NCBI GenBank assembly: GCA_036496605.1
Contig: DASXKV010000054.1
Span: forward strand, 248,001 to 312,000
Direction: 5' to 3'
Origin: Gemmatimonadaceae bacterium
Lineage (GTDB): Bacteria > Gemmatimonadota > Gemmatimonadetes > Gemmatimonadales > Gemmatimonadaceae
DNA: 64,000 nt
The notes below the pieces were generated by a model, which did no database searches, was not told the origin of the DNA, and saw only the letters and a list, made by a program, of their open reading frames with translations. The position numbers were made by a program, and so were the translations under genes. Below are positions 32,390-36,549 of this stretch, in pieces (the stretch's first letter is position 1; the number at the start of each line of letters is the position of its first letter).

Positions 32390-32400
32390 AAAACAACGGG

Positions 32401-32470
32401 TTAGGGTCTAGAGGTATAGGGCTAGGGAGGTTCCAGGAATTGTGTCCCTAGCGCCTATACCCCTAGCCCC
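32401..32470. repeat. CTAGGG-rich intergenic hairpin (copy A)
   Basis: GGTATAGGGCTAGGGA (32413-32428) faces TCCCTAGCGCCTATACCCCT (32445-32464), so the segment can fold into a long stem with a short loop. It separates the methyltransferase gene from the TROVE gene and its right arm includes the TROVE stop codon. Related CTAGGG/CCCTAG stems occur at 34161-34246 and 58212-58278. Confidence 0.6.
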
Positions 32471-34127
32471 TCGTCGCTCCGGCAAAGCCGGCGATGACTT
32501 CCGGCGTCGCCGTATCGAATCCGACAACGTCGAGCATTCCTGAATCGTTAGGGTCTGCAATGCTGAACCCGTTCGACGTCATGCCAACCACAACTAGCTT
32601 GGCGGGAATGCCCATTTGCTCGCGGTAGTCGCGCAGCGCCTGCGCCGGATGAATGCTCCCGGCCCAGGTCTCGCTGTCGGTGTAGATCACGAACACGTCC
32701 ACCTCCCAGCGGTGCTTCAGCGCCTCCACCATCGGGAGGGCGCAGTCCGTTCCGCCGAACGGCAACGCTTCCGTCATCCGCACGACGTCATCCAACCGCT
32801 GCCGCGGCGAGATCACGACAGGCGTTAGGCCAGTATTGTAGCCAAATGCCGAGTGCAGCGAGGGATACTGACCATTCGTAAATGCGACAACCAGATGATT
32901 TGGCTCGTTCGCCGCCGTCACGAGTGCCATCGCCGCCGAGGCCGCGCGACACGACAGAAACGGCATCCCGTGCACCGGTGTCACCATCGAGCCCGAAACG
33001 TCCAGCGCAAGCATGACGCGCTTGCCTGTCGACGTCGCGTTCTCGAAGGCCAGGTAAAAGGCGCCATCCAGCACGTCCACCACCTGGCTCACCGGACTCC
33101 AGATCCCAGTGCCGCGTCCCCCGTGCCCGCCTGCATACGTCTTGAGCGCGGCAAGCAGCGACAGCGGATGCACGCGCGCCCGGCGGATCGCGGTGCGCTC
33201 GCTCAGCCGCGCCACGACCATCCGTACGGCATCGCTGCCCGGCACGAGCAATCCAACTTTGCTCATGACGCCGAGGTTCCGCACGAGAGCGGTGAGGGGC
33301 ATCCGGTCCAGCAATGCCTCCCACACGACGGCGTGCCGGAGCAGCTCCGTCGGCACCATTTCGCGCGTCAACCGATAGATCCGGATGACTCGCGCCGCGT
33401 CGTTAGGTGCCATGTGACGCAACGCCTGCACCGCCTCGATCCGCTCCATGAACTCGAGGTCGGCGCCGCCCTTGAGCTGGATTACCCCCTCCCATCCCTT
33501 CACCGCGTAGCGGAAGAGCAGCTCGTGCGTCACCGTTAGAGCCTTCGGGTGGGCAAGACGCAGCGCGTCGCGATGCGCCCACCCGTCCCGCGTCTGGTAC
33601 TTCAACAGCTGATACGCGAGGTCCGACGGCGCTTGACGAGTATACCAGCGCGCCACGGCGTTCCGTACGCCACGTCCCCAACCACGGAACGCCTTGACGT
33701 ACTCGAGCCAGTGGAACAAGTGCATTCCCGTCCGTGCAACTGCGGGCAACGCGGTGAGCGCGAGCGCACGCGTGACGTCGTTACCAAGTCCAGCCGCCAT
33801 CGCGAGGACGAACAACGCCGGATCGTTCTTCGGCGCGCGTCCCAACTGACTGATCTCGACCACACGGCTCACGACGCGCGGACCATTCTCGGCAATGCAC
33901 TCGACGACGCCGCGCGCATTCTCCTGTGTGAGCGCGCGCTCGGCGATGTAATACGTGCCGCCCTCGGTACCGAGAATCAGGAACCGGTCGAGTCGCGCCC
34001 ACTTGTCGACGGCCCACGCGTATCCGCCGGCCGAGTTGGGGACCTGGGCGCTATTGGGAATCGGTTCCGCCTGCGGCGTCACGAGACGCCGGAGGCGAGT
34101 CGCGAAGTGCTTGGAAAGATGCTGCAT
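32463..34127 (-). CDS. rsr: TROVE-domain RNA-binding protein, Ro60/Rsr family
   Basis: The 554-aa cytoplasmic protein is an ortholog-type match to the ring-shaped Ro60 autoantigen. Residues ~35-350 form the helical-repeat TROVE ring (GGYAWAVDKWARLDRFLILG, YHIAERALTQ-like YYIAERALTQENARG). Residues ~355-554 form a von Willebrand A domain with an intact MIDAS: DVSGS, GGTDC and YTDSETW. Bacterial Rsr proteins bind structured Y RNAs and work with exoribonucleases in RNA degradation and stress recovery. GGAGG precedes the ATG by 6 nt. The 1-kb stretch upstream holds tRNA-like and other RNA elements, as expected for Y RNA genes. No rtcB or PNPase gene is adjacent. Confidence 0.92.
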   Translation of the reverse strand: MQHLSKHFATRLRRLVTPQAEPIPNSAQVPNSAGGYAWAVDKWARLDRFLILGTEGGTYYIAERALTQENARGVVECIAENGPRVVSRVVEISQLGRAPKNDPALFVLAMAAGLGNDVTRALALTALPAVARTGMHLFHWLEYVKAFRGWGRGVRNAVARWYTRQAPSDLAYQLLKYQTRDGWAHRDALRLAHPKALTVTHELLFRYAVKGWEGVIQLKGGADLEFMERIEAVQALRHMAPNDAARVIRIYRLTREMVPTELLRHAVVWEALLDRMPLTALVRNLGVMSKVGLLVPGSDAVRMVVARLSERTAIRRARVHPLSLLAALKTYAGGHGGRGTGIWSPVSQVVDVLDGAFYLAFENATSTGKRVMLALDVSGSMVTPVHGMPFLSCRAASAAMALVTAANEPNHLVVAFTNGQYPSLHSAFGYNTGLTPVVISPRQRLDDVVRMTEALPFGGTDCALPMVEALKHRWEVDVFVIYTDSETWAGSIHPAQALRDYREQMGIPAKLVVVGMTSNGFSIADPNDSGMLDVVGFDTATPEVIAGFAGATRG

Positions 34128-34160
34128 GAGGCGCCTCCGTTGGTTGATGGTTGAATTGGA

Positions 34161-34246
34161 AGAGGAGTTAGGGGCGTGGGGCTAGGGCGCCTAACGGGCG
34201 CCGATTTGGCGGACCCTAGCTTCTATTCCCCAGCCCTAATTCCTCT
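34161..34246. repeat. CTAGGG-rich hairpin (copy B) in the TROVE leader
   Basis: AGAGGAGTTAGGGGCGTGGG... (34161-34187) pairs imperfectly with 34214-34246 (CCCTAGC...CCAGCCCTAATTCCTCT). The loop contains a smaller GGCGCC/GGCGCC fold around a perfect GCCTAACG motif. On the minus strand it lies between the tRNA-like RNA and the TROVE start, so it could end the RNA transcript, mark a processing site or sit in the mRNA leader. Confidence 0.55.
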
Positions 34247-34257
34247 GCTTGACGTCG

Positions 34258-34396
34258 CCGTCGATTCACCTGGTAGGATTCGAACCTACGACCTCCCGAT
34301 TATCAGTCGATAATCCTCACGAATCGGCCCGCCAGAGCGGACAAGTATTGAGCGAGGCATGGCGCTCTAGCCTCTGAGCTACAGGTGCATCGTCGG
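34258..34396 (-). ncRNA. tRNA-like RNA, candidate YrlA-type Y RNA
   Basis: On the minus strand the ends pair: CCGACGATGCACCTG (34396-34382) with CAGGTGAATCGACGG (34272-34258), giving 13 pairs with two mismatches. Inside are TA and a D-arm GCTCAGAGGCTAGAGC (34379-34364), a ~48-nt insertion, a hairpin GATTATC-GACT-GATAATC (34315-34298) that contains a CTGATAA stretch as in the tRNA-Ile anticodon loop, AGGTC, and a T-arm GTAGG-TTCGAAT-CCTAC (34289-34273). The insertion between D-arm and anticodon-like arm, the degenerate anticodon stem and the lack of encoded CCA rule against a normal tRNA. YrlA-type bacterial Y RNAs mimic tRNA and sit beside rsr genes, as here. A decayed tRNA-Ile is the alternative. 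Confidence 0.7.
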
Positions 34397-34404
34397 ACGT
34401 GTCG

Positions 34405-34488
34405 TGCTCACAAGCGGATAAGTATTCGCGCTTGGTTGCCCTAACGACTGGGCTATCTCGATGAGAGGTTGATAACCGATAACCAAGC
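34405..34488 (-). ncRNA. Second tRNA-like element related to the first, candidate Y RNA
   Basis: On the minus strand an 8-bp stem GCTTGGTT/AACCAAGC (34488-34481 with 34437-34430) can enclose three small hairpins: GGTT-ATC-AACC, TCTC-ATC-GAGA and a D-arm-like GCCC-AGTCGTTA-GGGC (34453-34438). It is followed by AAGCG...CGCTT around AATACTTATCC. The 14-mer AATACTTATCCGCT (34426-34413) recurs as AATACTTGTCCGCT (34349-34336) in the tRNA-like RNA, in both cases shortly after a TA-preceded D-arm. This suggests a partial duplication or a second Y RNA species. Ends are uncertain. Confidence 0.5.
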
Positions 34489-34507
34489 AGCCTCGACCCG
34501 CGATTGA

Positions 34508-34519
34508 GCACATATGTGC
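34508..34519. promoter_or_regulatory. 12-bp perfect palindrome upstream of the tRNA-like elements
   Basis: GCACATATGTGC is a perfect palindrome 20 bp upstream (minus strand) of the second tRNA-like element. It may be a protein-binding site. It also forms an imperfect sigma-54-like string (TGGCAC...TGC) whose GG-GC spacing is one base short. Confidence 0.35.
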
Positions 34520-34528
34520 CAGTTCTTG

Positions 34529-34606
34529 CTGCCAGCCGGCGAATGCGCGTGCTTCGCTCCGGGAGTCGCGTTCCTGAGCTCGACGACACGCACCACCGGC
34601 TGGCAG
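34529..34606. ncRNA. Long hairpin, structured RNA candidate
   Basis: CTGCCAGCCGG (34529-34539) and CCGGCTGGCAG (34596-34606) are perfect 11-bp arms. Inside, GCGTG pairs with CACGC and then GCTC..GGA with TCC..GAGC, so about 23 pairs stack towards a 7-nt loop. No reading frame explains this. No T-run follows on either strand, so it is not a simple terminator. It could be a third RNA of the TROVE locus or a cruciform. Strand is undetermined. Confidence 0.45.
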
Positions 34607-34679
34607 TTTAGATCATGTGGAACAGCAAATTGCTTTCGTTCCCCGGACCATCACTTGTCAAACAGCGTCGAACACATGC

Positions 34680-34713
34680 AAAACGCCCCACCTGCGCTCA
34701 GTGCAGGTGGGGC
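34680..34713 (-). terminator. Rho-independent terminator, minus strand
   Basis: GCCCCACCTGC (34685-34695) and GCAGGTGGGGC (34703-34713) form a perfect 11-bp GC-rich stem with a 7-nt loop. On the minus strand it is followed after one G by TTTT (34683-34680). It would end transcription arriving from the small ORF or RNA candidate to its right. Confidence 0.75.
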
Positions 34714-34753
34714 GAGAGCTCTCGTTCCCCGATCCGGTTCGGATACGCAGCGC

Positions 34754-34921
34754 TTACTGAGCGCGCCCTCCTTTGCCGGAACCTGCACCGATTTGGCACT
34801 CGAGCTCGTCGCCGTACGTGACGGCGCCGATGCGCGACGGACTACGGTCGCTAAACGCGACCATCGTCGCGCCGCGCTGCCACAGTTCCGTTGGTGAGTG
34901 TTTGAGCTCGGGTGAAATCAT
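34754..34921 (-). CDS. Possible 55-aa protein ending before a terminator
   Basis: The frame reads MISPELKHSPTELWQRGATM and ends SGKGGRAQ. It is soluble in appearance, with one Cys, and I recognise no family. Support comes from context: it lies between a promoter/RNA candidate and a strong terminator 41 bp past its stop. There is no good ribosome binding site (nearest GGAG is ~20 nt upstream). The segment could instead be part of a longer non-coding RNA. Confidence 0.35.
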   Translation of the reverse strand: MISPELKHSPTELWQRGATMVAFSDRSPSRIGAVTYGDELECQIGAGSGKGGRAQ

Positions 34922-34947
34922 GTTCGTTTGGTTGATCCTATTCTCCG

Positions 34948-35065
34948 AAAAAAGGAAAGTCGCGTCCGATGATCCGCCCGGCGCACAACGCGCTTCGGGG
35001 CTGAGTGGCCACCACCGATCGCTCGGCGGTGAGTACTCGGGAACATCGGGACGCGACTCCCAGGG
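34948..35065 (-). ncRNA. Branched small RNA candidate with its own promoter
   Basis: Predicted from ~35065 to the TTTTTT at 34953-34948. The ends pair: GTCGCGTCC (35057-35049) with GGACGCGAC (34967-34959), a perfect 9-bp stem that can extend. Two internal arms are visible: GAGT-ACT-CACCG...CGGTG-GTGGCC-ACTC, and CCC-CGAA-GCGC-GTTGT-GCGC-C-GGG. A sigma-70-type promoter lies 7 nt upstream. The size (~118 nt), closing end-stem and branched interior resemble Y RNAs, and the TROVE gene lies 820 bp downstream on the same strand. I found no match to signature sequences of 5S, SRP, tmRNA or RNase P RNA. Confidence 0.55.
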
Positions 35066-35071
35066 GAACCG

Positions 35072-35100
35072 AGTCTATTCGTGTTTGGTGGGTCTGTCAA
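35072..35100 (-). promoter_or_regulatory. Sigma-70-type promoter, minus strand
   Basis: TTGACA (35100-35095), a 17-bp spacer and TAGACT (35077-35072) form a near-consensus promoter pointing into the small RNA candidate. It is among the best -35/-10 pairs I could see in this GC-rich window. It begins 28 bp after the amidohydrolase stop. Confidence 0.65.
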
Positions 35101-35127
35101 GGCCAACGTAAATCGGAGCGGACGCGC

Positions 35128-36549
35128 TCAACGGATGCCCACTTGTCCCTTCACCGACGCAATCAACTTCGCCGAGTCGTAACCGACACCATCCTTGAAC
35201 ACCGTTGTCACCTTCCGAATCGTCGACGGATCAGCCGCGAGATCACCATTCAGCACAACGAGATCCGCCGCCTTCCCCGTCTCGAGCGAACCGGTCTTTC
35301 CGTACACGCCGAGGATCTTTGCACCATTCGCGGACATGATCTGCACCGCCTGTGCCGGCGTGAACCCCGCCTCGATGAACAATTCGTAATTCCGCTGATC
35401 ACCAAATCCAGGTAGTGCGCCACCAAATCCCGTCGGATCGACGCCGGCCGCGAGCATTCCACCCGCGTCCACGAACTCTTTTTCGAAGGCCATCTGATTC
35501 TTCAGCATCTCCGACGTGAACGTCCACGTCGACGACGTATCGATGAACGAGCGAACGTTGAGATACGCAGTCTTCACTTCCGGCGCCATCGCGTCCAGCG
35601 TACGCTCGTCGCTCACCGGCCTATTCTTGAAGAAGGGCTCGAACACCGCGAGCGTCGACGTCATCGGCACTTTGTGGTCGACCATCTTCTTGATCGTTAG
35701 GTGCGCCGTCTCACCCGAGGCGTTTGCCATGCCAACGCGAGTCATGCTGTTCGCCGGACACATGTCCGGCTTTTTCTGCGGATCGAAATCCGTATTGGTC
35801 ATGAAGCCGTGCTCGAGGTTGTCGATCCCGAGGTCGACCGCTTCCTGAAAAGACACCGAGCAGAGATGCCCGGTGACTTTGAGGCCGCGCTTGTGTGCTT
35901 CGTCGATCGCCGCTTTGAGATCGGCGCGCTTGATGTCGGTGTATGCCTTGATCCACGTCGCGCCTTCCTGCGCCCAGTAGGAGACGAACCGTCGCGCCGC
36001 CTCCGGCGACGCGACGACCGCCATGCCGCCCCCGCCGTTCGCGCCAGTGATGTACGGCGCGGTGAGGACGATGTGCGGGCCGGGAATCTGTCCCACGTCA
36101 ACGGCGTGCTTGGTATCGATGTCGGCGTATGGCGCCAGGGAGCCCGTTGTGCGGATCGTCGTCACGCCGGAACCGAGATACAATCGCGGTCCGCTGTAGC
36201 CTAACGACACCTCACGACCGCCGGCCGCGGTGTAGAAGAGATGATCGTGCATTCCGATCAGCCCCGGGATGACCGTCTGGCCGGAGAGATCGATCGTGCG
36301 CGCACCTTGCGGCACCGTCACACTCGACGCGGCGCCGACCGCGGCGATCTTCTCGCCGCGAATGACGATCGTCTGATGCGGCTTCGCCGCGGCGCCCGTC
36401 CCATCGATGACGGTGACGTTCGTCAGCGCGACGACCGGTTCGCTCACCGTCACGAAGTCTCGAGTCGTCTTCGACATCGAGCTCACTGACTGGGCCGCGC
36501 TGTTGGTAGCGAGCAAGGCAACCGCGATCACCGAGAGTGCTCTCTTCAT
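35128..36549 (-). CDS. Secreted amidohydrolase, imidazolonepropionase-like
   Basis: The 473-aa protein has a Sec signal peptide (MKRALSVIAVALLATNSAAQ) and an amidohydrolase TIM barrel (COG1228 type). Metal-site features are GMHDHLFY (HxH), a Lys in TWIKAYTDIK, GHLCS, LEHGFMTNTD and GVDPTGFGG. The N- and C-terminal strands of the composite beta-sandwich are present (TVIDGTGAAAKPHQTIVIRG and LETGKAADLVVLNGDL). Such exported amidohydrolases often cleave peptides or cyclic amides; the substrate is unknown. It is followed by the multicopper oxidase gene upstream on the same strand, 25 bp away, so the two may be co-transcribed. Confidence 0.88.
   Translation of the reverse strand: MKRALSVIAVALLATNSAAQSVSSMSKTTRDFVTVSEPVVALTNVTVIDGTGAAAKPHQTIVIRGEKIAAVGAASSVTVPQGARTIDLSGQTVIPGLIGMHDHLFYTAAGGREVSLGYSGPRLYLGSGVTTIRTTGSLAPYADIDTKHAVDVGQIPGPHIVLTAPYITGANGGGGMAVVASPEAARRFVSYWAQEGATWIKAYTDIKRADLKAAIDEAHKRGLKVTGHLCSVSFQEAVDLGIDNLEHGFMTNTDFDPQKKPDMCPANSMTRVGMANASGETAHLTIKKMVDHKVPMTSTLAVFEPFFKNRPVSDERTLDAMAPEVKTAYLNVRSFIDTSSTWTFTSEMLKNQMAFEKEFVDAGGMLAAGVDPTGFGGALPGFGDQRNYELFIEAGFTPAQAVQIMSANGAKILGVYGKTGSLETGKAADLVVLNGDLAADPSTIRKVTTVFKDGVGYDSAKLIASVKGQVGIR

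What the first reader, a model, noticed from the sequence alone, without database searches (positions are those of the whole stretch)
34128..35127. One-kilobase RNA array beside the TROVE gene
Within 1 kb lie a leader hairpin, a tRNA-like RNA, a related partial copy, a palindrome, a 23-pair hairpin, a terminator, a small ORF and a promoter-driven RNA. In an otherwise tightly packed genome this is exceptional, and all strand-assignable parts point the same way as the TROVE gene. It may be an expanded Ro60-Y RNA system.
Basis: inference. Interest (0 to 1): 0.78.

Follow-up and report, generated by a model that had tools for sequence, protein, structure and literature searches.

The report
tRNA-ordered Y RNAs beside Ro60
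Next to a bacterial gene for the Ro60 ring protein lie small partner RNAs, one of which is built like a tRNA with a protein-binding stem inserted and has its ends in the opposite place from the known bacterial versions, so it may show how these tRNA-mimicking RNAs arose and are made.

Summary
The 1-kb gap upstream of the TROVE (Ro60) gene is a real, conserved RNA locus on the minus strand. In order of transcription it holds a sigma-70-type promoter, a leader RNA, a 55-codon ORF, a terminator hairpin, a long hairpin, an end-closed Y RNA (34408-34506), a tRNA-like Y RNA (34266-34388), then TROVE. Similar arrays precede TROVE in relatives, in two Chloroflexota and in model cyanobacteria. In this genome and in 200 genomes of the phylum, full-length tRNA-like units (>99 bits) occur only at TROVE loci, one with a truncated TROVE gene. 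The main new point is topology. Classic YrlA is a circularly permuted tRNA: its ends lie on the Ro-binding stem and the T-arm precedes the D-arm. Here the order is that of tRNA: a covarying acceptor stem carries both ends and the Ro-type stem is closed by a short loop. A covariance model rotated into YrlA order finds classic YrlA in phages and an actinomycete; the unrotated model wins here and in cyanobacteria. Expression, binding and processing are inferred. The main YrlA survey (Chen 2014) could not be read, so priority is uncertain.

The parts
32463..34127 (-). TROVE (Ro60 orthologue) gene, 554 aa, with TROVE and Ro60-type vWA domains
   Evidence: Pfam TROVE 6.1e-38, vWA_Ro60 1.6e-64
34140..34245 (-). 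imperfect palindrome between the Y RNAs and the TROVE start codon; single copy, not seen in relatives
   Evidence: sequence; own-genome search
34266..34388 (-). tRNA-order Y RNA: acceptor 34388-34382/34272-34266 (6 of 7 pairs here), D-arm 34379-34364, Ro-type stem 34342-34337/34332-34327 closed by loop TCTG, T-arm 34289-34273
   Evidence: R1 104.1 bits; covariation in 26 units; fold
34408..34506 (-). end-closed (canonical) Y RNA: GCGGGTCGA ... GGTTATC ... CTTATCCGC
   Evidence: R2, built without it, 35 bits, E 2.5e-4
34529..34606 (-). long hairpin c with the conserved motif ACGCGACTCCC
   Evidence: fold z -5.1; conserved in relatives
34639..34663 (-). conserved motif TTTGACAAGTGATGGTCCGGGGAAC, -35-like but without a clear -10 box
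   Evidence: seen at the same place in L030, L043, L082
34684..34714 (-). terminator-like GC hairpin followed by TTTT, possible attenuator
   Evidence: conserved in relatives
34754..34921 (-). small ORF, 55 aa (MISPELKHSPTELWQ...GGRAQ), conserved in position only
   Evidence: sequence; relatives
34952..35061 (-). leader RNA f: GGGAGUCGCGUCCCGAUG ... CAUCGGACGCGACUUU, variable middle
   Evidence: z -4.9; conserved ends in 14 loci
35072..35100 (-). sigma-70-type promoter TTGACA-17-TAGACT
   Evidence: same position in relatives

Best explanation
The region is the promoter, leader and Y-RNA part of a Ro60 ribonucleoprotein operon. Shown by sequence: one promoter is followed by a leader RNA, a small ORF, a terminator hairpin, a long hairpin, an end-closed Y RNA and a tRNA-like Y RNA, then TROVE. 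Shown by comparison: the tRNA-like unit is homologous to YrlA but circularly permuted into tRNA order, so its ends lie on an acceptor stem and its Ro-type stem is a closed hairpin placed where a tRNA has its anticodon loop. Inferred: the Ro-type stems dock both RNAs on the TROVE ring; the tRNA-like body is the effector-binding or mimic part, as in the known Ro60-Y RNA-PNPase machine; the acceptor-ended RNA is cut out of the transcript by tRNA enzymes (RNase P, RNase Z) instead of being defined by Y-stem ends; and the terminator hairpin acts as an attenuator, so that Y RNAs and TROVE rise under stress such as RNA damage.
For: TROVE protein. Conserved gene order in the phylum. Acceptor: 6 of 7 pairs with changes on both sides; whole structure 96.4% paired against 84.1% in shuffles, 0/500. 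Own-unit acceptor pairing 6.3 of 7 Watson-Crick against 4.3 for the next unit. Full-length units only at TROVE loci in the own genome and in 200 genomes, the one exception having a truncated TROVE gene. Canonical Y RNA found by an independent model. Rotated model R3 finds classic YrlA in phages, Bosea and Nonomuraea; unrotated R1 wins in the window (104.1 against 43.5) and in three cyanobacterial plasmids.
Against: No transcript, binding or end-mapping data. The acceptor in the window has a G-A mismatch at its first pair and no encoded CCA. Units of tandem arrays in relatives can be read in either register (L036: R1 109.3, R3 102.2). Not every TROVE relative has a full-length unit (L041, L043, L047). 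RtcB, near TROVE in most relatives, is on another contig here.
Confidence: 0.82

Rival explanations
1. It is ordinary YrlA in the usual topology, and the tRNA order is a misreading of tandem units whose true ends lie on the Y stem.
For: In relatives with tandem units the rotated model scores almost as well across neighbours (L036 102.2 bits); in phage Cashline the unrotated model can read across two classic units (55.5 bits).
Against: The window has one D-arm/T-arm pair only, with D before T, and no D-arm between the T-arm and TROVE; R1 104.1 against R3 43.5 bits. Acceptors pair better within units than between neighbours. The Ro-type stem is closed by a 4-nt loop.
Confidence: 0.08
2. It is a tRNA gene, or remnant of one, with an intron-like insertion near the anticodon, and has nothing to do with Ro60.
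For: The 3' half resembles the genome's own tRNA-Asn closely (TCGACTGTTAATCGAGTGGTCGTAGG) and has a tRNA-Ile-like CTGATAA loop; sub-threshold Rfam tRNA match.
Against: Full-length units occur only at TROVE loci; many sister units have no anticodon loop at all; the insert carries the same motifs as end-closed Y RNAs (GGGYCGA, GGTTATC, TYRTCCGC), which a separate model recovers.
Confidence: 0.04
3. The whole kilobase is a cis-acting leader (attenuator or riboswitch) of the TROVE mRNA, and no separate small RNAs are made.
For: One promoter, small ORF and terminator hairpin lie upstream in the same orientation; leader and long hairpin also precede RtcB genes.
Against: RtcB loci with the leader carry no full-length tRNA-like unit, so the Y-type RNAs go with TROVE and not with the leader; unit number and acceptor sequence vary between genomes while structure is kept.
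Confidence: 0.06

Closest known systems
YrlA, tRNA-mimicking bacterial Y RNA (Salmonella structure PDB 6CU1; also phage copies read here)
   Same: D-arm, T-arm, acceptor-like helix and Ro-type stem with GGGCCGA, GGTTATC and TYGTCCGC motifs; encoded beside TROVE; found by the rotated model
   Different: Order and ends: YrlA has its ends on the Ro stem and the T-arm before the D-arm; here the ends are on the acceptor, D precedes T, and the Ro stem is a closed hairpin
End-closed bacterial Y RNA without tRNA domain (YrlB-like, Deinococcus Y RNA-like)
   Same: Window 34408-34506: long end-closed stem with the Ro-type motifs, beside TROVE
   Different: Sequence diverged; the loop holds a D-arm-like hairpin but no T-arm
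Salmonella rsr-yrlBA-rtcBA RNA repair operon (PMC7790460)
   Same: Ro60 gene with two Y RNAs; RtcB in the same locus in most relatives
   Different: RtcB not linked in this window; sigma-70-type promoter with a leader, no RtcR seen next to it; Y RNAs lie before the Ro60 gene
tRNA
   Same: Acceptor, D and T arms in tRNA order
   Different: A ~50-nt Ro-type stem replaces or displaces the anticodon arm; missed by ARAGORN

Membership tests
TROVE / Ro60 protein | TROVE domain followed by Ro60 vWA domain | tested here: met
   6.1e-38 and 1.6e-64
Bacterial Y RNA | encoded beside a Ro60 gene | tested here: met
   window and relatives
Bacterial Y RNA | conserved stem closed by the RNA ends with Ro-type motifs | tested here: met
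   34408-34506, independent model R2, 35 bits
Bacterial Y RNA | binds Ro60 in the cell | not testable with these tools
   needs pull-down
YrlA | tRNA-like D and T arms | tested here: met
   34266-34388
YrlA | circularly permuted order: Ro stem at the RNA ends, T-arm before D-arm | tested here: not met
   R1 104.1 against R3 43.5 bits; acceptor covariation
tRNA | standard cloverleaf recognised by ARAGORN / Rfam gathering score | tested here: not met
rsr-yrl-rtcBA RNA repair operon | RtcB ligase in the same locus | tested here: not met
   RtcB on another contig; met in most relatives

The most novel reading that the evidence does not exclude
A distinct Ro60 system whose Y RNAs are true acceptor-ended tRNA mimics, cut by RNase P and RNase Z and possibly CCA-tailed, keeping or regaining the tRNA order from which permuted YrlA arose by register shift in tandem arrays, and controlled together with RtcB by a shared RNA attenuator that senses RNA damage.
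Probability: 0.3. Interest if true: 0.86.

Novelty: new variant of a known kind. Interest (0 to 1): 0.72.

Why it matters
The tRNA-mimicking Y RNAs described in the sources I could read are circular permutants of tRNA with their ends on the Ro-binding stem. Homologues in normal tRNA order make the origin of YrlA from tRNA testable, predict a different maturation route (tRNA end-processing enzymes), and change how the RNA could enter the Ro60 ring, as a closed hairpin without free ends. The same form sits in Picosynechococcus sp. PCC 7002, a tractable model cyanobacterium, so it can be tested at the bench. The leader shared with RtcB genes also points to an RNA-based control of RNA repair in this phylum that I did not find described.

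Tried and rejected
Rfam at gathering threshold and at high E-value on the window, relatives, phage loci and the leader gave nothing useful beyond tRNA and tmRNA. ARAGORN calls in relatives are partly truncated misreadings of the long units. Idea that leader f pairs with hairpin c (GGGAGUCGCG against CGCGACUCCC): exact in nine loci, partly kept by wobble at RtcB loci, but five relatives have a changed c with f unchanged, so there is no covariation and it stays unproven. Idea that the hairpin next to TROVE is a dispersed repeat: single copy. Idea that f or c are Y RNAs: 6.1 and 9.9 bits with R2. Single-sequence scans for TROVE relatives found few; family searches found more. Chen 2014, Wang 2018 and the Wolin reviews are not in the held library. 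Literature searches found no paper joining this phylum with Ro60 or Y RNA nor one on Y RNA in PCC 7002.

Full report
OBSERVATION. The window lies in a genome of 5.97 Mb (contig 54) and has a 1-kb gap between a TROVE gene (32463-34127, minus) and an amidohydrolase (35128-36549, minus). The TROVE protein has the TROVE domain (6.1e-38) and the Ro60 vWA domain (1.6e-64).

CONSERVATION. 17 of 395 genomes of the phylum encode TROVE. Upstream of most of these genes lies a similar RNA-rich stretch. It begins with a TTGACA-17-TANNNT promoter followed closely by GGGAGTCGCGTCCCGATG, then a small ORF, a CGCCCCACC..GGTGGGGCG hairpin, a long hairpin with ACGCGACTCCC (CGCGACCCCC or CGCGACCACC in five relatives), Y-type RNAs, sometimes a tRNA-His or tRNA-Arg, and TROVE.

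tRNA-LIKE UNITS. I aligned 26 units from relatives of the phylum and two Chloroflexota (A1). The pattern is acceptor 5' strand, UA, D-arm, stem, YUYGYCCGC, short loop, GCGGGCCGA, GGUUAUC, variable loop, T-arm, acceptor 3' strand. In the acceptor, six of seven pairs change on both sides (for example GC 13, AU 11, CG 1 at pair 2). For the whole structure 96.4% of cells pair against 84.1% in shuffles, with 0 of 500 shuffles as good, and slid structures fall to 37-53%. Pairing within a unit (6.3 Watson-Crick of 7) exceeds pairing with the next unit (4.3) or with any other unit (3.6).

SPECIFICITY. With the covariance model R1 the window unit scores 104.1 bits; the other hits in the genome are at 63.7 bits or less and, where checked, are ordinary tRNAs. 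In 200 genomes of the phylum, full-length hits above 99 bits occur in five TROVE-positive genomes and in G018. In G018 the array is kept but the TROVE gene is cut off after about 40 codons, so the exception is a decayed TROVE locus. Three other TROVE-positive genomes in that set lack a full-length unit: L043 has only a unit without a D-arm, L041 only weak hits at 36-40 bits, and L047 only hits below 27 bits. In two Chloroflexota with a 57% identical TROVE the full-length units lie only in the TROVE locus.

SECOND RNA. The 'partial copy' was tested with a second model (R2) built from 19 end-closed Y RNAs of relatives, without the window. Its closing stem covaries in 8 of 12 pairs. R2 finds window 34408-34506 at 35 bits, E 2.5e-4 in 167 kb, and two RNAs beside TROVE in a viral contig at 58 and 46 bits. 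The leader and long hairpin score 6-10 bits, so they are not Y RNAs by this test.

TOPOLOGY. In phage loci the classic order can be read off: Y 5' strand (GCCGA..CGGUUAYC), T-arm, acceptor capped by a loop such as UUCG, D-arm, Y 3' strand. Published work agrees: YrlA is a circular permutation of tRNA (PMC11472068) with its large stem formed by the 5' and 3' ends (PMC8394870). I therefore rotated 19 of the 26 units at their Ro-type loop, built model R3 in YrlA order, and searched loci not used for training. R3 finds YrlA in Gordonia and Mycobacterium phages (65-79 bits), a viral contig (67 and 61), a Bosea plasmid (54) and Nonomuraea (80); R1 gives at most 56 bits for such loci, apart from nothing better than ordinary tRNAs. 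In the window R1 gives 104.1 and R3 43.5. In three Picosynechococcus plasmids R1 gives 53-60 for the best two units and R3 31-44. So the two forms are homologous, differ by circular permutation, and both exist in nature. Tandem arrays can be read in either register (L036: R1 109.3, R3 102.2), although R3 was trained on halves of these very units; this suggests how one form could turn into the other. The window, with a single T-arm, cannot be read in the classic register.

NEIGHBOURHOOD AND CONTROL. RtcB RNA ligase lies near TROVE in most relatives, as in the Salmonella rsr-yrlBA-rtcBA operon (PMC7790460); in this genome RtcB is on another contig. The leader also precedes RtcB in genomes without TROVE (L090, L091, L097, L099, L100) and, in L103, at a second RtcB locus of a TROVE-positive genome; hairpin c is present at most of these. 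No full-length tRNA-like unit was found at the five of these loci that were searched. The leader module thus belongs to a wider RNA-repair group, the Y RNAs to TROVE. Since I saw no clear second promoter after the terminator hairpin, I infer attenuation; this is unproven.

MECHANISM. Shown: anatomy, conservation, topology, linkage. Inferred from the Ro60 literature (PMC8394870, PMC7790460): the Ro-type stems bind the TROVE ring and the tRNA-like body tethers or decoys an effector (PNPase in the known machine). Inferred here: acceptor-ended units are matured by tRNA enzymes. Not shown: expression, binding, RNA ends, function.

VERDICT. It is a new topological variant of a known kind, the Ro60-associated tRNA-mimicking Y RNA. 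The main caveat on novelty is that the principal YrlA survey (Chen et al. 2014) could not be read, so tRNA-order units may have been noted there.

Noticed in passing
L090, L091, L097, L099, L100, L103: The leader f (GGGAGTCGCGTCCCGATG right after a sigma-70-type promoter), and in most cases hairpin c, also precede RtcB RNA-ligase genes away from TROVE; a candidate undescribed leader of an RNA-repair regulon.
   Followed up: partly
window 35061-35052 and 34570-34561 (minus): Leader f starts with GGGAGUCGCG, the exact complement of the CGCGACUCCC in hairpin c; exact in nine loci but not kept by covariation in five relatives.
   Followed up: partly
L107 2009-2410, L109 1009-1410, L111 1018-1419: Three tRNA-order Y-type units directly upstream of TROVE on plasmids of Picosynechococcus (PCC 73109, PCC 7002 pAQ7, PCC 8807), unannotated.
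   Followed up: yes
L044 2728-113 (minus): RtcB downstream of TROVE is interrupted at its active-site cysteine (DIAC/CGNA) by an in-frame intein-like insertion of about 450 residues; L045 and L043 show the same gap.
   Followed up: partly
L082 6900-8270: In G018 the array survives but TROVE is truncated to about 40 codons; an HNH-like ORF sits between a tRNA-Asp and the tRNA-order unit.
   Followed up: partly
L034, L039, L042, L044, L045 (tRNA-His); L030, L031 (tRNA-Arg); L033 (six tRNAs): Ordinary-looking tRNA genes stand inside the Y RNA arrays; whether they are extra copies or decoys was not tested.
   Followed up: no
L030 3501-3626, L043 2806-2914, L041, L042, L036, L044: A second kind of unit close to TROVE has acceptor and T-arm and the Ro-type hairpin but no D-arm.
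   Followed up: partly
L099 3395-3081 (minus); also L030, L034, L037, L042-L045, L090, L091, L096, L100: A small basic protein of about 100 aa (MNRI...) recurs next to RtcB or TROVE in this phylum.
   Followed up: no
L031, L041, L082, L092, L101: A recurring hairpin GGCGCGTATGGGC..GCCGCGCGCC runs into a tRNA-like segment with TAGCTCA, perhaps another structured RNA of this group.
   Followed up: no
window 32400-32472: A palindrome directly downstream of TROVE resembles the one at 34140-34245 (runs of CTAGGG), before a methyltransferase gene; possibly a minor intergenic repeat.
   Followed up: no
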